Under the pieces are notes generated by a model. It saw nothing but the letters and a program-made list of their open reading frames with translations. It made no database searches and was not told the DNA's origin. Below are positions 42,741-61,600 of a stretch of 64,000 nucleotides of DNA, piece by piece. The stretch lies in contig NC_087080.1 in the NCBI RefSeq assembly GCF_026151205.1, positions 9,141,720-9,205,719 of the forward strand, written 5' to 3'. How positions within the stretch are numbered: position 1 is the first letter of the stretch; each line of letters starts with the position of its first letter. The translations under genes and the position numbers were made by a program. The DNA is from Bolinopsis microptera. Taxonomy: Eukaryota > Ctenophora > Tentaculata > Lobata > Bolinopsidae.

Positions 42741-43240
42741 TTACCAAAACCCATATTCATGGGTAGAGTGGACCGCTGCCAGTGTCTCTCTTTCCCAAAC
42801 AAAAGGAAATGATATTAATTTGATTGACCGTTCTCAAATGCAAAATGATACCGAGAATGAAATCGGTCGCTCGCTTTTCCCATTCATTCACGGCTTACGA
42901 ATTGTAATAAGTTTCGATTGATTACATCAATCAGATGCTGTAAAAATCTCTTTGGGTTGCGTTCGGGTCGATACCTAGTATTTCGGGGTAAGGGTGGTAG
43001 TTATTACTTATTGAATTAGCTGAAGTTTATTGAATCTTTATTGCCGAGTACAGCTGCCTTCGGGTAGTTCTTCTTAATCTATTACAATTGTAAATGAATG
43101 GGAAAAGCGAGCGACCGATTTCATTCTCGGTATCATTTTGCATTTGAGAACGGTCAATCAAATTAATATCATTTCCTTTTGTTTGGGAAAGAGAGACACT
43201 GGCAGCGGTCCACTCTACCCATGAATATGGGTTTTGGTAA
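42741..43240. mobile_element. Foldback element copy 1: 148-bp perfect inverted arms, 204-bp loop
   Basis: 42741-42888 and 43093-43240 are exact reverse complements over 148 bp. The arms contain GTGGACCGCTGCCAGTGTCT and GATACCGAGAATGAAATCGG. The loop (42889-43092) is AT-rich and non-coding. A ~1.6-kb non-coding body follows. The second copy is at 49155-50930. Confidence 0.9.
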
Positions 43241-44630
43241 AATATCATCTCTTTTTGATTATAATGTCAGGGTACTTTATAAAGTCGAAATATAAACTGA
43301 TATCTTCATTAATTAATAAGGAGGAAGTTTCAACGATTTCGAAATTTTCCTTTAAAAACATTTCCTTGTGTTTAGGTAAGCATATCGGTCGATCACTGAC
43401 TGAATATGCCACCTAATACTCATTCAAGTTGGCATTAAATTCATATATAATGACATTAAACTGTCGTGGCAAAGCAGAATTTGTTGGAAATCACGAATGA
43501 GCAAAATTCTCACCTTTCGCACGTGCAAACTTTGAGCGGACGTTGCGTGCGCATCCAATATTGAATCGCCGTAAATTTTTGCATGTAATTGTTTTATATA
43601 TAGCTTGATAAGCATGCAAAGTTTCAAAGTATTTCAAGAAGAACTGTAATCACAACGGCACTCTAAAGTTGACAGAAAATGACGAAAACAGCAATTTTCA
43701 GTGATTTTAGCAATTTTCTATCAATTTGGGCGTGTCCCCACGTGTGCAACTTTTCGATTTTCAACTTTAAAACTAGCCTAATGCACAATTTATACCTATA
43801 GGAAGCAGAACTGAGCTCCTCAACTCAAGGCATGGCCCAACACCAGAGAATACTAAATCGCAAAATTGACGTTTTTATAAAATAATTCTTCAAAAAAGCA
43901 CAAACTTCAATGACGAATATCTTTATGAAGGAGCAAGCTAGAAAAACTTTCCGGTAGATTTTCAGAATGCTTGAACAATTATCTAAGATGAAAATCTCCT
44001 CAGATTTTGAATAAAATTACTCCTTAATGGTTAAAAATTAATTTTAAAAGTTATTACTTTGTCAAAAATCAAGTTTTATAAACGGTTAACTTGACGACGT
44101 CATCAAGGGGTGTTTATGACGTCAAATAATTTTTTTATACAATGTAAACTAAAGTGTAAACAATTATTTGCAAGACCTGTGGTCGGAAATGGCTTTATCT
44201 TTTATACTTTTCAATCTATGGACAATTAAATACAGGCTACAATTGACTGGCAAAGCGTCTATCCCTGAATATGTATATATATATATATCACGACAATCTG
44301 TCGTAAAACAGGGGTTCTAGAAAACCCATTTCCCGATACTCCTGAAACCTGAAACTTTTTTTGCAGTCGATTTGATCAACGTCTAGACGCCCTGAAAAAT
44401 TTCAGATCTCTAACTCAATTTTAACATGGTTTTTAAGGCACCTGAATATGGCGATTTTGGGTTTTTTACCGAATTTCGTATAACAGTGCTGGCGAGTATT
44501 TTATGCAAATTTCTTATAAATCTCAACATAACTATTTTTTATTCCTGTCATCTTTGACATCAAATTAGAATGTTTTGAACTAAAAATAATTCTGCTTAAC
44601 GACTTCCGATGAGTCTTAATGCCTGGAAAA

Positions 44631-44715
44631 CTCCTGCCGGAGGCGGCGGCCTTCGGCCGCCGCCCCCGGCCGGAGTGCACGCTTCGCGTGCACAAAAGAG
44701 GCTTGTAACGTGTAC
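44631..44715. repeat. GC-rich hairpin insertion in the foldback body
   Basis: GGCGGCGGCCTTCGGCCGCC is a near-perfect stem, followed by GTGCACGCTTCGCGTGCAC, a second stem-loop. It is absent from the homologous position of copy 2 (about 50840), which reads straight from GCCTGGAAAAC to AATAAAGGGG. Confidence 0.8.
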
Positions 44716-46348: not shown

Positions 46349-49300
46349 ATGAAATCCAAATTCCTGGAAAGGTCAATCATCTTATTCCTGATCTGTGCCA
46401 GTCAAGGTAAAACTAAATAATTCGTAAATTCGCAGAACTATTACCAATATCTGAATGAGGATCAAATGAAAACTTTATGATTACTTTTATGTTATCGGCG
46501 ATAATTTGTAGGGGTGTCGGGTTTGATATATTTTTAATGGCTAAATTAAGCCCCTACTAAGAATGAAATGAGAATAACAAAAACCGTAAAACTAGACATC
46601 TGACAAGTCTAAATGTAAACACACTGTGCAGAAATCATCGACGATAAAAGTAAAAGTTCAACTTTTGATGACGATATTATTTTTTAGTATCTTATCTTAG
46701 GCCGATCAGAGGAGTTATTGTCGCACAAGAAGGAGGAGTTATTGTCGCACAAAAAGGAGGAGTTATTGTCGCACAAAAAGGAAGAGTTATTGTCGCACAA
46801 AAAGGAGGAGTCATTGTCGTACAAGAAGCCGACTGCTCAGTCAGACACGTCATGGTTTGGACACAGCTGGAGAGCAGTTGATGGTGACCGGAACGTTACC
46901 TACTGGAATTCGTTAGTTATCTAGATACGTATTTAGTTTTAATTTAATTTAAGCACGATTAAAATTATCAAATGCACCTCGTGTTGATTGACGATGTCAA
47001 CCCTTCCAGATCGTTGCTCTGCGAATTAACAGAGCATCGATCTTGTCTCGATGCAAAGTAAAAAATGATAGTTTGCTTGACGCGTCGAAGCGGCGAAGTC
47101 CTCCAACACCTCGTGAGAAGAGTCCCGAATCTATACGCATGATACACTTGTTATACTGTTTCTTAGTCTCGCCATAGAATTTAACTCAAAAATTAGTCTC
47201 GTCCCTTTATAATATCAAAAAGACTAAATATATTTCGCGGTTAGAGTTGTATGCATTGCTTCGACAAAAACGTAATGTGGTTGGCAATGTGTCACTAATA
47301 ATATTTGACTACAGGACGTGTACCTACAATGTGTCACTAATATTTGACTACAGGACGTGTACCCACAATGTTTCACTAATATTTGACTACAGGACGTGTA
47401 CCCACAATGTGTCACTAATATTTGACTGCAGGACGTGTACCCACAATGTTTCACTAATATTTGACTACAGGACGTGTACCCACAACGACATCTTGAATAG
47501 CGCAGTAACTAACACAGTACAGGACTGGTGGAGGGTTGACCTGTTGGAAGTATACCACGTGACTAGAGTTGTTGCTTACAACCGACTGGGATCTCCTCTC
47601 AAACTTAACAGTACCCGGGTAAACAAATGAAATCTCTAATTTAACTGTACTTGCTAATTTAGCTATTTAAACTTATTTCATCGAAGTCATCTTGACTAGA
47701 TCCAATATCTTAATAAGATTTATATCTCTATAGATGATGTAGTTTTAAAGACACCTAAAATAACATATCCCAGGTGAAGGTTGATGGAGTGGAGTGTGAA
47801 GATAGCCTTATAACGGTAACTCCAGACAACACCACAAAGAAGGAAATGGAGATTCCCCTGAAATGCAACAGAGCAGGAAGAGTGGTCTCCTTTGAGATTC
47901 CGCCAGATCCGCGGGAGACTGTTCACCTAACACTTTGTGAGGTCCTGGTATTTGGCTACAAGATATCAGGTTACTAATTACTATGTTACTAGGTTATAAG
48001 CTGGTTACTAGGTTACTAGATGGTTACTAGGTTACTAGATGGTTGATAGGTTACTATAGCTATAAATACTTTTAAGGCCAGCGACAGGTTACTTTAATTT
48101 TAAAGAAAAGCATACCGTATCTTTTTCTGCCAAACGCTTCGTTGCTCCAGCGAAGCCGTTAAATAGTTTATAAACTATATAAATATGTATTGTGTATTTT
48201 GCCGACGATAAATCTAACATCCTTCATTTTTAGCCAGTACTTTCGGTAATTAAATACCACAATTGTCAATTACATAAAATTGCCCACTTTTCGCACTTTT
48301 CACACTTTTTCACACTTTTCGCACATGAAATGTTGCTTGAATCTCATCTGCGAAATTTTCAGCGGAAGACCGAACACCATCAAGATCTTCTATAAAATGG
48401 GAGTTAGAAGATAATCTACTTCTTATCAGTGGGGAGGGTTTCACTCAGGGAGCGGTCTGTGACAGTTGGATGAACATGTCACACATTGAATTAGACTTGA
48501 TTTGTCAGTCGTTAAACTTTGATGAAGCGTATGCTTTCTGGACAGCTAATCTACCCTCAAAGAGGTTTGTCTGGTATATTAGTATATTAGTTTGTTTACA
48601 AACAGTTTTTCAGATATTTTCAGCCCAATTCTTTAAATGTACATGTATTTTGGTCTATATGATATACAATCCGTATTTGTATTTAGGATTTGATTGATTA
48701 AAATTTGGGAGAGAGAATCTGGAATTTGTATACAAAATATGCCATTTTTCAATCATCATTTAAACCGATTTTTCAATCAACCTTTCAATCGACCAATGAA
48801 GAGTGAGGACAAATAAACGTAAATTTACAGGAAGATTAAATTTAACGTAGATCATATAAATTGCGAAAATGGAACGAAAGACATTTTCGACTGCAAATTG
48901 TCAGGATGGAAACCTAAATCTTACTGCCTTGAAAGTGATGCGCTGCATATTTCTTGTACCAAAAAAAGTAGAAATGAGTACAACGGTAAGGTTTTATCAA
49001 CTTTTTAAATCAGTTTCAATGGATTTTTATTGATCTTTATTGCATTTTAAAATATTTTTACTTGAAATATTTAAAATCAACTTATTATGTTAAGCCGGAT
49101 TTTTGATCTAAGCCTTTACATAACAATTTAACGTCCTAGTTTTAATATTTGTTAATTTGACCAAAACCCATAATCATGGGTAGAGTGAACCGCTGCCAGT
49201 GTCTCTCTTTTCCAAACAAAAGAAAATGATATTAATTTGAGGAACCGTCCGCAAATGCAAATTGATACCGAGAATGAAATCGGTCGCTCGCTTTTCCCAT

Positions 49301-52300
49301 TCAATAAGCTTTATTACAATACGTAAGCCGTGAATGAATGGGAAAAGCGAGCGACCGATTTCATTCTCGGTATCAATTTGCATTTGCGGACGGTTCCTCA
49401 AATTAATATCATTTTCTTTTGTTTGGAAAAGAGAGACACTGGCAGCGGTTCACTCTACCCATGATTATGGGTTTTGGTCAAATATCATCTCTTTTTGATT
49501 ATAATGTCAGGATAATTTACACAGTCGAAACTTAATAAGGAGGTAATTTCAACGATTTCGAAATTTTACCTTTGAAAACGTTTCCTTGTGTTTAGGTAGG
49601 CATATCTGTCAATAACAGACTGAATATAGCATTTTTTACTCATTCAAGTTGGCATTAAATTCAAATATAATGCCATTTTAATATCGTGGGAAAGCAGAAT
49701 ATATTCGAAATCACGAATGAGCAAAATTCTCACCTTTCGCACGTGCAAACTTTGAGCGGACGTTGCGTGCGCATAAAATATTGAATCACCATAAATTTTT
49801 GCATAGTGTTATTTAATATATAGTTTGATAAGCATGAAAAGTTTCAGAAGATTTCAAAAAGAACTTGGATCACAACGGGACTCCAAAGTTGGTAAAAATC
49901 GTGAAAATAACAATTTTTAGTGATTTTAGCTATTTTAAATGAATTTGGGCGTGTCCCCACGTGTGCAACTTTTCGATTTTCAACTTTAAAACTAGCCTAT
50001 AACACAATTTAGACCTTTAGAAAGCAAAATTGAGCTCCACAACCCAAGGGATGGCCCAACACCAGAGAATACTAATTCACAACTTTTGTGTTTTTATAAA
50101 ATTATTCTTCAAAAAAGCACAAACTTCAATAGCGAATATCTTTATGAAGGAGCAAGGTAGGAAAACTTTCCGGTAGATTTTCAGAATGCTTGAACAATTA
50201 TCTAAGGTGAAAATGTCCTCAGATTTTGAATAAAATTACTCCTTAATGCTTTAAAATCGATTTGAAAAGTTGTTATTTTGTCAAAAATCAAGTTTTAAAA
50301 ACACTTAAATTGATGACGTCATCAAGTGATGATGATGACGATAAATTATTTTTCGATATAATGTAAACTAAAGTATAAACAATTATCTTTAAAACCTGTG
50401 GTTCGAAATGACTGTATCTTTTATACTTTTGAATCTACGGACACTTAAATGTAGGCTACAATTTACTGCAAAAGCGTCTATACATATATATATATATATA
50501 GCTTCACGACAATCTGTTGTAAAACAGGGGTTCCAGAAAACCCACTTCCCGATACTCCTGCAACATGAAATTTTTTTTACAGTCGATTTGGACAAGGTCT
50601 AGACGCTCTGCAAAGTTTCAGATCTCTAACTCGATTTTAACATGGTTTTTAAGGCACCTGAATATGGCGATTTTGGGTTTTTTACCTAATTTCGTATAAC
50701 ATGCTGGCGCGTATTTTGCGCAAATTTCTTAAAAACCTCCACATAACTATTTCTTATTCCTGTCATCTTTAACATTGAATTAGAATGTTTTGAACTTAAA
50801 TATACCTGCTGAACTACTTTCGATGAGTCTTAATGCCTGGAAAACAATAAAGGGGATATAATAGTATAGGGGGTACATAGTGTTGTGAATATAAGGGCAA
50901 CGGTTATGCTTGCCAGCATTGTGATTGGAATTCGGACAAATTGGCAAAAAATATGTTAAAATTTGAAAAAAAATTTGAAATTGGTAAAATATATTAAAAT
51001 TGGTAAAATAAATAGCAATAAAAAACTGGTTTTTATGGTATTTATTTATTCTTCATTGGTACAGAATCAGTAATAGTAAACTATCCCAGGTGCAGAATGT
51101 AACGTTGCAAACGAGGAAGGCTTCCTGAAAGAAAAGTGTGTCTCAGAAACTGAACGTGTTTATTTTAAGTGTCCATTTGAGGAGGACTATTACGAGATAC
51201 AGCAAAAGTTTCCTTGTAATACCAACCCGCACTTCACGAACGACACCACAGGTAAAACTAAAATAGCTACAATATTATTGCAAAAGCGAAGTTATCGTCG
51301 ATTCCATCATTAACAAATGGTCAAGCTTGCAGTCTTAAAAATGTATCTAAATTCCAAAATCCGCAGAATATTGTTACAACCTGACAAAAACCTGTAGATT
51401 CAACCAAACTCAGATGTGCGGAGTAGATGGAAACAAGGCAGACAAGGGCAGGTGCATGGTAATTTGCCCCACAAGTAGCGGCCCCTCAACAGCTCTCCCG
51501 ACCAGGTACATATGTAATGAGAGGAAGGATTGTGATGATGGAGCCGATGAGTGGGATTGTGAAGAGGAGCTGAACGGAAGCGAGCCGTGCACGCTGGACT
51601 CTTCTATCAGCGTATCTGCTGATGTTCTGAAAAAAGTGAGATGCGACGAATCGTATTTTTACTGTGGAGGGGGGTTCTTCTACCTCGATGAAGATGATGG
51701 ATATTGCAACCATTCAACAGGACAAATAGTAAACTTTTCTAAGCCAAGCTGGATTAAAAGTTGGTGGCTTCATCCTTATTTTACATGCATTGAAAGCGAA
51801 GTAAACTTATGGGATCAAAAAGGATGCAAGGATCCGGGCGGAACCCTCGGTCCAGACCAAGGTATTCGTTGTAAGAGTGCTTTAAATAGCTCGCAGGAAA
51901 TATACGTTCCACCTTTTAACATGTGCACCAACCCCCGATTTGCTGAGGGCGCAGAATACCATCCTTGTGAGAAGTGGGAGGAACAAATGAACTGTCAACT
52001 GGGCAAAATAAACGAAGCTCTGACGTGTAAAGTGAACGGGAAAACACGAACATCACCAAATACCTGATCTGTGGTAGAGGTGAAACCTGTGATGATGGTA
52101 TGGATGAGAAGTGCACAAACTTTACTACAGTCTCTAATGAGCACTGTGGTATACATAACCATTCCATATGTGATGGAGTGAATGATTGTCCTTTAGGAGT
52201 GGACGAAACTGACTGCAATGCTACAGCATATAAAAATATTACATGTCAGCGCAAAGTCCATTACCATCCTGATACCAAGTTTCTTCCACTCCTTAAATCT

Positions 52301-54769
52301 TTTGTTATGGACGGAGTTGATGATTGCATCGACGGTAAAGATGAGAGTAAGGACTTCTTCCAAAAATGCGGCCAAGAAAACAGAATAAGATGGGATGCTA
52401 AAACATCAACCTGCAGTGAAATGCTCAAAATCAGCAACATACCGGAGGATCAAAGATATTTGAACATGAACAACTTGTGTGACCACGTGTCTGACTTTGA
52501 GGGAGAGAAGGCCATGTGTTACATCAGTAGAGATTATGCAAACTGGTGGACGGACACTATTACCCATGCTGGTAGAATATTCGTGCCCCCGTGTGTGCCC
52601 GACCTCCTTAAGTACAGTCAGGTTTTTAGCTGCACTGAAAAAGTTCCTCATATTGATATAATCGGCGTAAAAATGAAAAATATAATTCATTCAGAAGTAA
52701 AAAGGCATTGTTCATTTTTATATGGCAACCTATATTTGTTTGCATCATGCAACAACTTGTGTATTGAAAAAGGTGTACAATGTATGTATAAGTATGGCGG
52801 TATAAATGACTGTTTGGAAGCAAGCTTTGAGACCAGCAATACATTAAAAAGAAACAAAACAACCAACATGTCCGAAATCATCAAGGTGTCACCAGAACCA
52901 GGTTCACACTCACAGTACCTCGACAACGTGTTCCCGTGTAAAAGTGGGAAGTGTATTACAAGGGACAAGGTTTGTGACCTAGCTGATGACTGTGGAGATG
53001 GGTCTGATGGGTCTGTTGGGTCTGATGAAGACGGGTGTATTAATCAGTTTACTTGTGATTCCAGTGGAGAGAGACTCATTCTAAGTAAGCAGTGTAACGG
53101 GATCATGAACTGTGTAGATTTCAGTGATGAGTGTGGACCTCAGTGTGAGAACACCCAACGTCGCATTATTTCCAGCGCTCATCTGAGAACTGCTGCGTGG
53201 CTTATCGGGGTAGGATCTACAGTCATCAACATCCTAGTTCTTATTAAGTCCGGGGCACAGCTCACTCGATTGAGGGAATTCTCTGTGGTATTTAGGGACA
53301 ACTTCTTGATCATGTTGATTGCTTTTGGGGACTTGTTAGTCGGATTGTATCTCCTCCTTATTGCAATAGCCGACTACATAATAGGAGAGAGATATTGTAA
53401 AGAACAATTTAAGTGGAGGGGTGCTTCTGAGTGTTTATTTCTCGGAATTTTAAGTTCAGTAGGGTCCCAGATATCCCTCTTCACCATGACAACCCTAAGT
53501 ATTTACAGAGTCTACCGTATAGGTCATGTCTTCCAATCTAACATTTTATCCAAGAAGTGGGTTGCACTGACTGCAGTTGTTTGTCTTCTGACACTCCTCA
53601 TTTCAGTTCTTCTCAGTGTCATACCGATAATGAGTCAGCTGGAAGATTTCTTCATAAACGGTCTAAGCTACGAAGAAATAACACTGTTCGTTGGAATGAT
53701 CAATAAAAATATCCATGCTGATGTGATAAAGCAATATCAAGGAAAAATTAGACTACGATATAAAGACGGGCAACCTAACATGTCATGGGAAACGATACGA
53801 AGGTTCATAGGAGAGATGTTCTCCAAGGATCATGGAGGAGTTCAAGGGAGAGGCATAGGATTTTACGGGAACTCAGGAGTGTGCCTTTTCAAATACTTTG
53901 TCACTGAAGATGATCCCCAAAAAGTGTATTCTCTCTCCGTTCTATTCATAAACTTTTTCTGCTTCATGATCATCACCATATGCTACATCATAGTGCTCAT
54001 CATATCCAGATCCAACTCAAATAATAGATATGCAGCCCAGATGAACACAGCTCTACAGAGAAAGATAAGCATCATAATCCTGTCTGACGCTTGTTGTTGG
54101 ATTCCTTTTATTACCATAGGGCTCCTACATTTCATGATGGTGGTTGATGCTTCCCGTTACTATGATTTCTGCTCAATAGTCATTCTACCGGTTAACTCTT
54201 TGATAAATCCCATTATTTATCATTCTGAATTTAAAGAATGGCTGAGATTATTCGTAGGACTTTGGAACAGAGTCTGCAGCAGAGTAAGAAAATTGCTACC
54301 TTTTATCTCTAGCGCGAGGGCTAATGATGAGATTGTGCAAATACCCGAAACAAGAACTACCCATATCAAGCTTACTGTGCCTGGAGAGGTATCAAGTTCC
54401 AGAGGGGAAAGGGTTTCTCTGAATGTTATTTTGCAGAAACCAATGGATACAACATCATTTATTTCTGAGGCTCAAGATGACGCTGAAAAACGTCCAGATG
54501 ATGTTGAAGAACTTTCAGATGATGTTAAAAAACGTCCAGATGATGTTGAAGTACGTCCATATGATGTTGAAATACGTCCAGATGATGTTGGAATACGTCC
54601 AGATGATGTTGAAATACGTCCAGATGATGTTGAAATACGTCCAGATGATGTTGGAATGCGTCCAGATGATGTTGAAGTACGTCCATATGATGTTGAAACA
54701 CGTTCAGATGATGTTGAAATACGTCCAGATGATGTTGAAATACGTCCAGATGAAGAATGGAGATGATTT
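46349..54769 (+). CDS. Chimeric receptor: F-type lectin, SRCR, LDLa modules and LGR/RXFP-like 7TM domain
   Basis: Phase-consistent exons: 46349-46406 (signal peptide), 46701-46911, 47471-47618, 47774-47969, 48363-48564, 48831-48985, 51090-51251, 51367-54766; ~1,510 codons. Order: signal peptide (1-19); five EELLSHKK repeats (~22-62); F-type lectin (~62-204; KPTAQSD, WWRVDLLEVYHVTRVV, LTLCEVLVFG); an SRCR-like domain over two exons (GFTQGAVCDSW, LDLICQSLNF, INCENGTKDIFDC); Cys-rich region with LDLa ends CDDGADEWDC, CDDGMDEKC, LGVDETDC and DFSDEC; seven TMs (~985-1330) with IYRVY at TM3, FYGNSGVCLFKYF before TM5 (LGR/relaxin-receptor hallmark) and LINPIIY in TM7; a tail of 7-residue DDVEIRP repeats. 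F-type lectins bind fucosylated glycans; coupling of glycan recognition to G-protein signalling is inference. One base is missing at about 52048-52052 (frame change before ITKYLICGRG). Intron 6 holds the foldback copy at 49155-50930. Confidence 0.8.
46710..46830 (+). repeat. 24-bp coding tandem repeat (EELLSHKK)
   Basis: Five copies of GAGTTATTGTCGCACAAAAAG-type units (24 bp) in exon 2, between signal peptide and lectin domain. Only a few substitutions, so recently expanded. Confidence 0.9.
47288..47485 (+). repeat. 39-bp tandem repeat that carries the 3' splice site of the lectin exon
   Basis: Five units (the first is 42 bp) contain TTTGACTACAG|GACGTGTAC, i.e. an AG acceptor plus the first codons of the exon. 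Candidate exon starts are 47315, 47354, 47393, 47432 and 47471, 39 bp apart. All are in the same phase with no stop between them. Confidence 0.9.
47985..48055 (+). repeat. Short tandem repeat GGTTACTAGATGGTTACTA in an intron
   Basis: Several near copies of a 10-18-bp TTACTAGG unit just after the lectin exon. Confidence 0.75.
49155..49483. mobile_element. Foldback element copy 2: 149-bp perfect inverted arms, 31-bp loop
   Basis: 49155-49303 and 49335-49483 are exact reverse complements. Sites that differ from copy 1 (GTGAACCGCTGCC, GAGGAACCGTCCGC, CAAATTGATACC) are changed on both arms. It lies in the intron between the SRCR exon and exon 7 of the receptor gene. Confidence 0.9.
49484..50930 (+). 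repeat. Foldback element body, copy 2
   Basis: Collinear with 43241-44870 at high identity by eye, without its GC-rich hairpin insertion. Non-coding. Includes an (AT)n run at about 50482-50500. Confidence 0.85.
54480..54760 (+). repeat. 21-bp coding tandem repeat in the receptor C-tail
   Basis: About 13 units of CGTCCAGATGATGTTGAAATA encode DDVEIRP-type heptapeptides in the cytoplasmic tail, giving a long acidic/basic alternating region. Confidence 0.9.
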
Positions 54770-55610: not shown

Positions 55611-58600
55611 TTAATAGTCGTTTTCCAAGAACTTATCAGTGGATCCTAATATTCTTGCGGAGTACTTATCGTTGATGAGCTCGTAACACGATTTCGTTTT
55701 TGATCTTGTCAACAAATAATTGACATTTTTAAATCGCAAGATTTTCTTTTTTCCGGATTTATCAACAATTTGTGAGGAATCGTTGATTGCTTTCAGCACA
55801 CCTGAAAAATTATGTTAACTTGCACAATATGTATACACAAAATATATACACAAATGTATACACAATATGTATACACAAAATTTTATGAGAACAACCAATA
55901 TCAAACCACGTAATAAAAAACAAAAAAACTTATTTTGAAAGACTTATAGAATCTTCCTAAACTAACCCAGAAATCCAGTTACTTCGTCGTCTATACGAAC
56001 TATCTCCACTCTGAAGCCCTCGCCATCACTCTGAACAACATTGAGTTTGAACATGTCTCCTATCAGAACAACTCGGCTGTTCTTCTGTTTTATCGTAACA
56101 CTTCCCACGGACGACGGTAGAGGATGGTTCAGTTTGTTCTTAAGAGTTACTGAATTCAATCCAGAGTAGATGGTTAGGGAAGAGTAAGTTCCGTCCTGAA
56201 AGTGGAAGTGGGGTTGAAGGGGTTTATTGGAGGATATGAAACATTTTATATCAAGAGGATCACAACATCACTCAATCGAAATTGAAAAAAGATGTATTTT
56301 ACTTTTCTTAGAGTTCCGTAAATCTGTGCAGAGTCCGTGTCAACCAAAGTGTATAATTTCTTCAGTACCATTTTAGCAGACAGACACAAATTTACTCCGT
56401 GTATGTCCAGATCAATAGGTACATCCGATATGATTGGCTCGGAAATCTGAAATGGGAAATGTTACATATGAAATAACAAAGCAGATAAAGTATCATCGAA
56501 ATTTGACTTGAAGACTGGGAGCCGTGAAGCAATAAGGCGCATGATTACTTTTATTTCCCCCATTTATGATACTCACAATAACCTATCTCAAACTAACCGT
56601 TAAAGATGCAGATCTAAGTCGTTTCTTCTTCTTCCTGGCACAGTCCATAGTATTACAGTCCCTAATCTGTACCTCGTCCTCGGAGCACTGCTGCCCCACA
56701 CAAGATCCTCTGGTCCTCCTCTTAGTGCCTCCTCCGCACTCCGCAGAACACTCGCTCCAAGAGTTCCAGTTCTCCAGTACTGTTTTCCTTTTGCAGACCG
56801 CCTTCAGGACACAAGATATCTCCTCGTGTCCGGGACCTTCACACGTGCCTCCACCGTTAGAGGGGACAGGGTTGGTGCAGGTTCGGGACTTACGTTTGGT
56901 TCCAGTACCACACGGCACTGAACAGTCGCTCCAGCCACTCCATACACTCCAGTTGCCATCAACTGAGGGGGGAGGGTAGTGTTACAAGTTGAGTAGATTT
57001 CAACAATCAAATCATAAATTTAAACTCTTACAGTGTTTACTGTCCAGTAGTATTTGTGGGTAAAGTCTTACTTCTTTGAGGACATTTCTTGAGGTAGCAG
57101 ATCTTATTCTCGACACTGAGACCCTCACATTGAGGACCTCCAGTCTCCGGAGGAGGACTATCACAGTTCCTGTTCCTAGTCCTGGTTCCATAGCCACACT
57201 CTTTGCTGCACTCGTCCCACTCGGACCACTCAGAGAAGCCAGGACATTGCTCAGCTCCGCACTCCTCAGATTCAGACTCCATGTTCCTTGCACAGGATGG
57301 ATAACCTGGAGCTGGGGGTGGGTTGTTACAGAACCTGCTTCTTGTCCGAGTTCCTTCGCAGTCAGCAGAACATGGTGTCCAGTCCGTCCAGTCACTGAAT
57401 CCTGGAGATGTTTGGAGTTAGTTAATCAGTTACACAATTCATATCTTTGTTCGCTATTATATAACATATAACTTTACACTCTTGAGCTACTTCAGATGAG
57501 TCAAAAGAACAATTTTATGATCATTTTAGGTTGAAATCTGTAAAATTTACAAAATAATTAAGCTCATCACAGTAAGTGTTTAGCAACAAACCTGCTGTTT
57601 GGGTGACCTCGATCTCAGCTTCTTCAGTAGCTGATCCAGCTGAGTTGGAGACCTGTACCAAGTAGGTACCCTCATCTTCCTTTCCCACATCCTTGATAGT
57701 CAAACTACCGTTAATGTGGATCTCATACTTGTCACCGTCTCCCTCAATAATTGGTTGAGGGGTTCCAGAACCGGGTTCTGTGACGAACCAGTCGATCTTA
57801 ACAGGTCTAGAACCTCTAACTCTGGTCTCCAGCATGATGTTGTTGTTAGGATACGACTTGATATCTGAAGGAGCTGGGTCGAAGAAAGGTGGATCACTTC
57901 CCATCTCCTCAATATTCAGAACAGTCTCGGTATCATCAGCACCGTGTTCATTTGCAATAGTAAGACGCAGGTTTCCAGCATTGAGAGAGTAGGGATAGGG
58001 TAGGGTAGCCTCCAACTCATACTGATCAGGCATGTTGGGGACGGGTGATAGCTCCCATTTGAGGTGCTTGCTAAGATCAGTGTCTAATCCTCGGAGAGAG
58101 TTATACAGGGTGACACTTAGCTCGTCCTCTGATTCTATAGTTCCTTCTATCTTTACTGACAGATCTACGTCATCACCTTTAGTTATGTAGATCTCAGCAG
58201 GTAGGGGTGTGATTATATTTAGAGCTGAAAGGGGAGGAGGATAAGAGAATCTTCAAACAAATAAAAGTACAAATACTCACATTAGAGTGAGACACCAACT
58301 AAACTTGGAGATACAGTTTATCTAGACAGGTATTAGATTTAGACACACCTCCAATTAAGAGGCTTCGCTATTATCTAAAGGTGTTTTTAAATTAAACATA
58401 CCTTTTCCAAGTTGAGCAGGTTGAACGGAAGGAGGTTCTTCTGAAGGTTCCTCAACACCGATATCAAATTTGTGAGATGCAGGATTACCCACACCGTTAT
58501 CAGCTGTTATAGTGTACAGACCAGCTTCTTCCACCTGAATATCGGGGATCTCGAGCGAGTAGCGGATTGTTTCGCCATCTACTTTCACAATCTGACTAAC

Positions 58601-61600
58601 TCCCTCAACTATATCTCCATTTCCATCGGTCACAACCAGATTTGGTCTTGGTACTCCTTTTATTTCCGCCTCAATCACGTGATTATCACCTTCTTCTAGA
58701 GTGAGGTCACGTGGCACGTTCGTGAACTGTGGGGCAAGTTCTAATGGTTCTACTTCGAGGTAAATCTCATGAGTAGCGGGCCTTCCTACTCCGTTATTTG
58801 CTGTTATCGTGTAGCGACCTGAGTCTTCTGGCTGAAGATCGGGGATGTCGAGAGAGAATCGGACCGTTTCCTCATCTACCTCTTCAATCTGGCCTTCTCC
58901 AACAAATACACCATCCTTATCAGTGACATAAACGTTCGGCTTGGGTACCCCCTTTATTTCAGCCTCGATCAGGTGGTCATCTCCTTGTGTTAAAGTGGCG
59001 TCACGTGGTATTTGGGTGATCTCTGGAGCACTTTCTGGTAGTTCTACTTCGAGATCAAACTCGTGTTTAGCAGGTCTTCCCACTCCGTTGTTTGCAACAA
59101 TCGTGTAGCGACCAGAGTCTTCGGGCTGAAATAGTTGCGTTGAAAGATATTCAGAACTTGTTGTGTGATGTATTTAGAAGAGGCTAACTGCAGGGCAGCT
59201 TTTTTAAACTTCTCAACAAGCGAACTTTTACAATTTACAGTAAGGGATGGTATTTAAAGAGCTCTATTGCGTTAGTTGGGATACTGACGATAGGTTGAAA
59301 AACAGATATTAAAGTTACAGGCAAGGCCGTTGAGCACTGCTAAAAAATCATGAGAGTCTAACCTGAAGATCGTCGACGTCGAGAGAGAAGCGAACAGTTT
59401 CCTCGTCTACTTCCACGATCTTACCCTTTCCGCGTCCGACCACATTTCCATCTTCATCAACAACATACACGTTCGGTTTCGGTATTCCCGTTACCTCAGC
59501 AACAATGGTATGATCGTCACCAGCTGTCAAGGTTACGTCACGCGGCACTTCCGTAAACTGCGGCGCGCGCTTTCTCAACTTCACGTCCAGTTCTGCGGTA
59601 GAGTAAGCGGTTCCGACCTCGTTAGTCGCTACAGCGCGGTATGTTCCAGCGTCATCAGGTTGCACGCTGGGTATCTGGTGGATGTACTTCAGACCATCTT
59701 CCGTAGGCTCAGTGTAGAAGGATATTGGTTCACCGTCCTTGGTGAGGGTCACTTTGGGATCAGGGACTCCTGCAAAAGCAGAATATCAGAAATTCAAATT
59801 TTTACTAAAAAGAGACAGAATAACATCGATAAAGAGGAACTTAATTGAGATCATTAAGGGGCAGGCAATATTAAACTTTAAGAAATCTCACCTGATATAA
59901 CAAAGGAGACCTCATGGGGTTCGCCCTGCTTAACTCTAGCATCTCCGAGACCCACCACGAACTCAGGTTCTTCTGATACTGTGGATATTAGTTATATTAG
60001 CAGTATTAGTAGGTTCTTCTGGTGCTGTGGAGGATTTTGTAAATGTATTTTTTTTTAATCTAGACACTTATTTTACTTCGGTGTATTCCAACAGCCACAA
60101 TGTTACACAAGTGCAACCAGCCAATTACAGGAAGCCGAAGGATCTTTTTGGCCAGTGACGGTTAAGGTAGTGTGTACCATACTTTCTTCGTCCGAGACTT
60201 TGCTGCAATGTGCAGCTCCTCATTTAACCCTCACACCCGATTTCTCGAGTATTCGGCTGAGTAGACCGGGGGGCTGCATAGACCACTCATGATCCTTAGC
60301 TGAACGTCGACGACGCTCACCCCACGACCAGGCAGTCAGTGGGTTTCGAACTCGCAACCTAACGATTGTAAGACAGGCGTTCTAACCAACTGCGCTACCT
60401 GGCCGCAAAAAAAATATATAAAAATAACCATTTACGACCAACAATTTGACCCATTTTCAAAGAGCTGTCTTGTTCTGGGAAATGTTTAGAGTCTGTTGTC
60501 TCTGTAATCTGTCATTACTGTCAATGAGTTAGATTAGTAATTGTACTTTTAAGTTAAGTAAGTTAGTTATGTTAAAATTTTAATAACGAACCAATCCTAA
60601 CAACTGTTTTACAGAAAGCGTCCCCAACTTCATTACTAGCCCTCAACGAGTACACCCCACTGTCGTCCGGTACCGCACTTTCTGTCACGGTCAGCACGGA
60701 GCTGTTACTGGTCACCAGCAAGTAACGATGGGACCACATGTTGGTCGGGGTAGGGTGACCGTACACTGTCGGCGTCAACCTCAGTTTGTCGCCGTGGTTT
60801 ACTGTCACAAACGCCGGGCAGTCGTGTATTGACGGCGCTATGTTTACTGTAAGTCGGGGTAAGTTCGTCACAATCAGTCAAATGTCGTGGTGGTCACCAA
60901 AATACAACTTTTGTGTCTAGTCTTATGAAATTACGTTCGAAAGTCGAGTCAAACAATTCATGTTTTTTGCAGTTGTTTAACAGAATAATAAAGTCTTAAA
61001 ACCTGAATTTTCCCAAGAAATCATGCAGAGTTTATTAACCAGCGGTAAGGTTACTAAGAAAGTTTACCTAGATTTTAAAATGTTACTTGCCAAGGGTAAT
61101 TTTACTTACGAGGGTAAGTTTACTTACAAGGGTAAGTTTACTTACATTTAAATTGTTAACTTACCAGTGGTGAACTCCAGATAGGCGGAGGTGGTGTTGA
61201 CTCCGTACTCGTTAGAAGCTGTCACCTTGTACCACCCACTATCTGATACCTGTCAGACACACAGTTACAAATCATGTTAAACCATCCCCACAATGTGTTG
61301 TACTTAATATTACCATGGTTAGTTCAGGAATTTTAAGCTAAAGTTGGGCAGTTTTTGAGTAAAAATATATGTTTGTTTCATTAATTTAAGTGAATAAAGA
61401 ACAGCATTAATCTCACCTCAGGGTTGTCAATAGTAAAGCTGGCTGTGGATGTCGTGCCAGTAGTCACTACTTTGGGTTTGAAAACAATCTCACTATCTTC
61501 TGTTACTTTTGATATAGTCATCTCCGGAGCCGGCAGTCCAAACGCAGATGCTAAATTGAAGGTGGGTATCAGCGCATTGGAGAAATCAAGTAATATTACA

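What the first reader, a model, noticed from the sequence alone, without database searches (positions are those of the whole stretch)
46349..54769. A GPCR with an F-type lectin and SRCR ectodomain
Eight phase-compatible exons join a signal peptide, Lys-rich repeats, a fucolectin-type domain, an SRCR-like domain, several LDLa modules and a 7TM domain with LGR/relaxin-receptor hallmarks. LDLa-7TM receptors are known (RXFP, GRL101), but I know of no described receptor that adds an F-type lectin and SRCR. It would let a G-protein receptor sense fucosylated glycans, plausible for microbe recognition or allorecognition.
Basis: partly seen in the sequence, partly recalled or inferred. Interest (0 to 1): 0.85.

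Follow-up and report, generated by a model that had tools for sequence, protein, structure and literature searches.

The report
Lectin-topped G-protein receptor in comb jelly
A probable comb-jelly gene joins a fucose-lectin-like domain and a scavenger-receptor domain to a hormone-receptor-like seven-helix receptor; two related genes share the design, so it looks real and may let cells signal on touching sugars or microbes, though no transcript or binding has been shown.

Summary
The exons are real and most likely form one gene. Eight GT-AG exons (46349-54766) encode a signal peptide, EELLSHKK repeats, an F-type lectin domain (Pfam 8e-8; best solved match MsaFBP32, 5e-16), a six-cysteine SRCR domain (8e-7), LDLa modules and an LGR/relaxin-type 7TM. 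Two other genes repeat the lectin-SRCR-LDLa-7TM order: C9:13.96 Mb (97% in compared coding bases) and C7:12.40 Mb (lectin 48%, receptor part 45%; exon phases match). The 13.96-Mb copy reads through there but has two breaks of its own; the C7 copy is broken in its 7TM. No nonsense change among 129 substitutions and dN/dS 0.36 argue for long constraint; assembly error or recent loss stay open. The core belongs to a family of at least 129 scored loci (536 candidates) in this genome, probably a ctenophore's. Five other members have SRCR upstream, two of them TSP1 as well. Fucose sensing is only partly supported: the basic triad is kept, the canonical motif is not met. New variant of a known kind.

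The parts
46349..46406 (+). Exon 1: start codon and signal peptide (MKSKFLERSIILFLICASQG), ends in phase 1
   Evidence: aligned copy at C9:13.96 Mb; signal peptide judged by eye and by hydrophobicity
46701..46911 (+). Exon 2: EELLSHKK-type repeats (five in this copy, two in the 13.96-Mb copy) and start of the F-type lectin domain, including AVDGD
47471..47618 (+). Exon 3: F-type lectin core (CTH ... WWRVDL ... NR..SPLK)
47774..47969 (+). Exon 4: end of the F-type lectin domain (LTLCEVLVFGY), ends in phase 1
48363..48564 (+). Exon 5: first half of the SRCR domain
48831..48985 (+). Exon 6: second half of the SRCR domain, ends in phase 1
49154..50917 (.). Repeat inserted in intron 6, absent from the 13.96-Mb copy (edges approximate); 49330-50845 is 87% identical to window 43090-44631
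51090..51251 (+). Exon 7: start of the conserved receptor core (AECNVANEEGFLKEKC...)
51367..52067 (+). Exon 8, first frame: LDLa-rich ectodomain up to the frame break near 52,040
52031..53167 (+). Exon 8, second frame: LDLa modules and juxtamembrane region
53168..54306 (+). LGR/relaxin-type seven-helix domain, with a second extracellular loop of about 95 residues
54307..54766 (+). Cytoplasmic tail with 21-base tandem repeats (PDDVEIR type)

Best explanation
It is one member of a very large family of class A receptors in this probable ctenophore genome. The core is an LDLa-rich ectodomain plus an LGR/relaxin-type 7TM, without detectable leucine-rich repeats. In one small clade (three genes found) two modules, an F-type lectin and an SRCR domain, both bounded by phase-1 introns, sit ahead of the core. 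Most likely mechanism: the lectin and SRCR domains dock on surface glycans or polyanions (of microbes, prey or other cells). This moves the LDLa stalk relative to the 7TM, which then signals through a G protein, as the LDLa module does in RXFP1. Shown here: exon structure, domain identity, recurrence in paralogues, constraint. Inferred: single transcript, surface expression, ligand class and G-protein coupling. The window copy as assembled has a broken frame, so function is argued for the clade rather than for this copy.
For: Exons and phases. Domains. Copy at C9:13.96 Mb with all eight exons. Copy at C7:12.40 Mb with F-lectin, two SRCR (the first weak) and core; four of four exons measured keep the window's length modulo 3. 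The clade is supported 100/100 in a 28-row 7TM tree. No nonsense among 1343 compared codons and dN/dS 0.36; 129 random substitutions would give 6.6 nonsense changes, P(0)=0.002. Exon indels 6 in about 4 kb (five, plus the window's break) against 17 in 1147 bases of five introns. No alternative first exon in intron 6 by a crude scan. 7TM nearest to TSHR, FSHR, LHCGR, RXFP1 by sequence, profile and fold. In the other members looked at, the module and core splices also read as phase 1, by eye.
Against: Frame breaks in all three genes: one in the window; two in the 13.96-Mb copy, plus a stop inside its tail repeats; two frame changes and a stop in the C7 copy's 7TM. The codon comparison ended at 54400, before the tail repeats, and left out the exon-2 repeats. 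No signal-peptide exon was identified for the C7 copy. No transcript evidence. The canonical fucose motif is not met. The lectin exons show the weakest constraint (dN/dS 0.72, small counts). The acidic residue of the DRY motif is missing in 27 of 27 rows shown, so coupling cannot be assumed.
Confidence: 0.66

Rival explanations
1. The gene is as described, but the window copy, and perhaps the whole three-gene clade, is recently inactivated.
For: Single-base frame breaks in window (1) and 13.96-Mb copy (2), further breaks in the C7 copy. Only 2 of the 60 rows of the best family matches report stops inside, one of them the C7 copy, though that list favours intact loci.
Against: No nonsense codon in 1343 compared, dN/dS 0.36, about tenfold fewer indels in exons than in the five introns compared. 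The breaks of the two near copies lie at different places. The B. microptera assembly, whose karyotype this one resembles, was built with wtdbg and polished with Illumina reads and pilon (PMC10232365, section 12); near-identical copies polish badly (inference).
Confidence: 0.3
2. Two neighbouring genes: a secreted lectin-SRCR protein (exons 1-6) and a separate LDLa-7TM receptor (from exon 7).
For: In the capped lists only 8 of 59 family loci show a lectin or SRCR module nearby, so the core often seems to stand without them; a long intron separates exons 6 and 7 in the window.
Against: The long intron is a repeat insertion; the 13.96-Mb copy's is about 260 bases. The exon-7 reading frame holds no Met, and no first exon was found in the intron. 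Order and exon phase are conserved to the C7 copy.
Confidence: 0.06
3. The F-type lectin domain no longer binds fucose and serves as a spacer or binds protein or another glycan; SRCR and LDLa are the sensing parts.
For: Acidic residue and Cys-Cys pair absent, His-Arg spacing 33-35 instead of 24 (PMC5712786). Highest dN/dS of the modules.
Against: His, Arg and Lys of the triad align between window and C7 lectins that are 48% identical (66 of 138), and AVDGD/AVDGN fits the cation motif; the second domain of MsaFBP32 also lacks the Cys-Cys pair.
Confidence: 0.45

Closest known systems
RXFP1/RXFP2 and GRL101 (type C LGRs)
   Same: LDLa modules ahead of a class A 7TM of LGR type; RXFP1 is among the top sequence and fold matches
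   Different: No leucine-rich repeat found by Pfam; F-lectin and SRCR added; second extracellular loop of about 95 residues; no acidic residue at the DRY position (that LGRs have one is recalled and seen in the FSHR alignment)
F-type lectins (MsaFBP32, eel AAA)
   Same: Near-full-length domain match, triad His/Arg/Lys, cation motif
   Different: Fused to a GPCR; acidic residue and spacing of the fucose motif not kept
SRCR-bearing adhesion GPCRs of sponge and amphioxus (PMC4302439, PMC2246102; passages read)
   Same: SRCR, and in amphioxus also LDLa, C-type lectin and discoidin, on 7TM receptors
   Different: Those are adhesion GPCRs; here the 7TM is rhodopsin/LGR type and no GAIN/GPS domain was found
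SRCR and C-type-lectin proteins of Mnemiopsis leidyi (PMC11797021; abstract, passages, section 6 part 1)
   Same: Ctenophore SRCR expansion with unusual domain partners, including LDL; the legend of the C-type-lectin panel lists GPS and 7TM, so a lectin on a 7TM receptor may already be drawn there
   Different: The legend of the SRCR panel lists no 7TM, and an F-type lectin-GPCR is not mentioned in what I read; figures are not held

Membership tests
Class A (rhodopsin-like) GPCR, LGR type | 7TM closest to LGR receptors | tested here: met
   7tm_1 5.5e-14; best 7TM matches in the PDB FSHR/LHCGR/TSHR/RXFP1 by sequence, profile and fold
Class A (rhodopsin-like) GPCR, LGR type | Leucine-rich repeats in the ectodomain | tested here: not met
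   No LRR family at E<=1 in the window protein nor at E<=0.01 in the 26 core sequences scanned
Type C LGR (RXFP, GRL101) | LDLa modules N-terminal to the 7TM | tested here: met
   PF00057 in 26 of 26 members scanned
Adhesion GPCR | GAIN/GPS domain and 7tm_2 | tested here: not met
   No such Pfam match in either part of the window protein at E<=1
F-type lectin | F-type lectin fold/sequence | tested here: met
   3CQO 4.7e-16, aligned to nearly the whole of both its lectin domains; fold not predicted
F-type lectin | Fucose motif H-X24-R-X-D-X4-R/K | tested here: not met
   His, Arg, Lys kept; acidic residue absent; H-R spacing 33 in window, 35 in C7 copy
F-type lectin | Fucose binding | not testable with these tools
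   needs a binding assay
SRCR group A | Six cysteines, domain split over two exons (definition recalled) | tested here: met
   PF00530 7.8e-7; six Cys; exons 5 and 6

The most novel reading that the evidence does not exclude
A ctenophore uses a gene family of more than a hundred LGR-type receptors as a modular recognition system. One conserved LDLa-7TM core, with a phase-1 splice acceptor, is fitted with interchangeable recognition modules (F-type lectin, SRCR, TSP1), giving G-protein-coupled pattern-recognition or self/non-self receptors in a lineage that seems to lack Toll-like receptors.
Probability: 0.3. Interest if true: 0.85.

Novelty: new variant of a known kind. Interest (0 to 1): 0.62.

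Why it matters
Lectin and scavenger domains usually signal through single-pass receptors or act as soluble proteins (recalled); adhesion GPCRs are the described receptors that carry them on a 7TM (PMC2246102, PMC4302439). [quoted passage not shown] It is testable by expression and glycan-array work.

Tried and rejected
Small intron across the frame break: a 46-base GT-AG stretch exists at the place, but it would remove residues that read in frame in the 13.96-Mb copy and include a largely conserved part of the core; rejected by eye. Galectin-like module on the C12 member (guess from reading L042): Pfam gave no support, and the 30 galectin matches listed in the genome include none at that gene, so dropped. 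Adhesion GPCR: no GAIN/GPS. NCBIfam: no match. Whether other ctenophores share the architecture could not be tested: the only eukaryote genome searchable here is the window's own. The Pfam lists (138 and 150 matches) do not contain the window's own lectin or SRCR, whose domains are split over exons, so further members with such modules can be missed.

The literature statement rests on ten full-text searches of open-licence PMC papers. Ctenophore together with F-type lectin gave 0 papers. No title, abstract start or passage that I saw describes an F-type-lectin GPCR. Eleven papers were opened for passages, two of them also for one section each (PMC11797021 section 6 part 1, PMC10232365 section 12); none was read whole. 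PMC11526382 gave nothing relevant, PMC11184263 only a remark on GPCR pruning.

Full report
WHERE IT IS. The window is G000:C9:9141720-9205719, in an assembly of 264.65 Mb in 232 contigs. Thirteen contigs are longer than 15 Mb, and contig 14 is 0.2 Mb. Their lengths add up, by hand, to about 97.5% of the bases. That fits a ctenophore with n=13; the Bolinopsis microptera assembly has 13 chromosome-scale scaffolds with 97.23% of its bases (PMC10232365, passages). The organism is inferred, not given; the percentages are close but not equal.

THE GENE. Eight exons with GT-AG introns join in one frame into exon 8. Exon-end phases are 1, 2, 0, 1, 2, 1, 1. Hence the lectin module (exons 2-4) and the SRCR module (exons 5-6) are each flanked by phase-1 introns, the usual sign of exon shuffling (recalled). 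Pfam finds F5_F8_type_C_2 8.4e-8, SRCR 7.8e-7, LDLa 6.6e-9 and 7tm_1 5.5e-14. The SRCR's best solved match is M130/CD163, 7.2e-4. Within exon 8 the frame breaks once, near 52,040. A 46-base GT-AG stretch there would delete residues that read in frame in the other copy, so I do not take it for an intron.

RECURRENCE. A search with the N-terminal part finds the same exons in order at C9:13.96 Mb (81-93% per stretch) and at C7:12.40 Mb (35-68% in four stretches). The first copy aligns with all eight exons and with upstream sequence; its intron 6 lacks the repeat of about 1.8 kb that lengthens the window's. Over compared codons it is 97% identical (129 differences in 4029 bases). The C7 copy has the lectin (6.5e-7; 48% identical to the window's), a weak first SRCR (0.0042, below cut-off), a second SRCR (1.5e-11), the core and a 7TM. 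Lectin exons 3 and 4 and both SRCR exons have the window's length modulo 3 (4 of 4), and the boundary sequences read as the same phases; the intron between the counterparts of exons 7 and 8 is absent. I identified no signal-peptide exon for the C7 copy. In a tree of 28 7TM rows the three genes form a clade with 100/100 support.

INTACT OR BROKEN. All three genes have frame breaks: the window one, the 13.96-Mb copy two (in exons 5 and 8) and also a stop inside its tail repeats, and the C7 copy two frame changes and a stop in its 7TM. Against decay: no nonsense codon in 1343 compared codons and dN/dS 0.364; by part, lectin 0.72 (151 codons), SRCR 0.46, LDLa 0.33-0.36, 7TM 0.24. The comparison left out the exon-2 repeats, a few bases at the break and everything after 54400. 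Random placement of 129 substitutions gives 6.6 nonsense changes on average, none in 0.18% of 5000 trials. Indels: 6 in about 4.03 kb of exon (five, plus the window's break; 3 single-base) against 17 in 1147 aligned bases of introns 1, 3, 4, 5 and 7 (3 single-base); introns 2 and 6, with a tandem array and the insertion, were left out. The B. microptera assembly used wtdbg, with Illumina polishing. Near-identical copies are hard to polish, so residual errors are plausible but unproved.

ONE GENE OR TWO. The exon-7 reading frame holds no Met. A crude scan for a hydrophobic start plus a phase-1 donor finds none in intron 6 of either copy, but finds exon 1 as control. With the conserved order and phases this makes two separate genes unlikely; RNA would settle it.

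LECTIN. The best solved match is MsaFBP32 (4.7e-16), aligned over nearly the whole of both of its lectin domains. The published fucose motif is H-X24-R-X-D-X4-R/K, and some family members deviate from it (PMC5712786, passages). Here His, Arg and Lys align with the triad, but the acidic residue and the Cys-Cys pair are absent and the His-Arg spacing is 33 (window) or 35 (C7 copy). AVDGD and AVDGN fit the published cation motif by eye. So fucose binding is possible, not shown.

RECEPTOR CORE. By phmmer the receptor part matches FSHR 1.1e-14, LHCGR 1.9e-14, TSHR 2.8e-12 and RXFP1 2.3e-10. With the family profile the top four rows are LRP2, through the LDLa region, followed by RXFP1 6.9e-28 and LHCGR 7.6e-28. 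The predicted model (mean pLDDT 70, pTM 0.65; helices mostly 80-90) has TSHR, FSHR, LHCGR, RXFP1, LGR4 and a C. elegans LGR as its top 30 fold matches, with TM-scores of only 0.3-0.5 over full chains. All 27 rows shown (two of them identical) have the Arg of the DRY position without an acidic residue before it, the TM2 Asp and NPxxY; 24 of 27 have CWxP; a long second extracellular loop ends in FYGN/S..VC (motif names recalled). No LRR was found.

FAMILY. A 7TM query scored 129 places on all 13 chromosomes, out of 536 candidates, all at E<1e-65; this is a lower bound. Crossing by eye the 60 rows (59 loci) with the 150 SRCR matches, five further receptors have an SRCR 1.0-1.4 kb upstream of the matched stretch on the same strand: C7:16.553, C7:16.562, C12:9.247, C5:5.674 and C5:5.991 Mb. 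I fetched three of these five upstream stretches: both C7 genes have TSP1 and SRCR modules (in L040 five SRCR and three TSP1 among nine frames tested; in L041 two and two among six), C12 has SRCR. In the tree, the four of these five that were included lie in two separate clades from the window's, so modules were gained more than once or lost often; most rows were not surveyed upstream. Five other members' upstream stretches (L015-L019) showed no such module by eye in open frames of 60 aa or more, but were not sent to Pfam.

FUNCTION. Most likely a cell-surface sensor: lectin and SRCR dock on glycans or polyanions and the LDLa stalk passes this to the 7TM. For RXFP1 the LDLa module is essential for activation (PMC4837482, abstract start in the listing). 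In Mnemiopsis 8 of the 12 differentially expressed SRCR genes rose on Vibrio re-exposure (PMC11797021, passages), which makes an immune role plausible for SRCR genes in general, not for this one.

VERDICT. The wider finding, a large receptor family with exchangeable modules, is the more interesting part.

Noticed in passing
G000, all 13 chromosomes: At least 129 places of one LDLa-7TM family, many with open frames of about 900-1300 aa; 536 candidates. A very large receptor expansion.
   Followed up: partly
L040, L041 (C7:16.546-16.562 Mb): Two neighbouring family members carry repeated TSP1 and SRCR exons upstream of the same core.
   Followed up: partly
L045 and L047 (C11:20.52 and 18.43 Mb): Family members 99.5% identical over 5.2 kb though 2 Mb apart; a third at C11:5.0 Mb is 94% identical. 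Recent dispersed duplication; the mechanism was not looked into.
   Followed up: partly
window 47303-47470: Tandem repeat of about 39 bases in intron 2, each unit carrying a copy of the exon-3 splice acceptor and first exon bases (by eye); the array is far longer in the 13.96-Mb copy.
   Followed up: partly
window 54480-54760: 21-base coding repeat in the cytoplasmic tail, with fewer copies and a stop inside the array in the 13.96-Mb copy.
   Followed up: partly
window 49330-50845 and 43090-44631: Two copies (87%) of an interspersed repeat, with an inverted-repeat element at its edge.
   Followed up: partly
G000:C1:3.474-3.516 Mb and C13:4.99-5.09 Mb: Dense clusters of F-type-lectin-like exons (PF22633) among the 138 matches listed.
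   Followed up: no
window 56583-59785, minus strand: Open frames that read by eye as TSP1 repeats and Ig-like domains, perhaps a neighbouring mosaic gene; not tested.
   Followed up: no
window 52031-54306 and 26 relatives: No acidic residue before the DRY-position Arg in 27 of 27 rows, and an unusually long, conserved second extracellular loop.
   Followed up: partly
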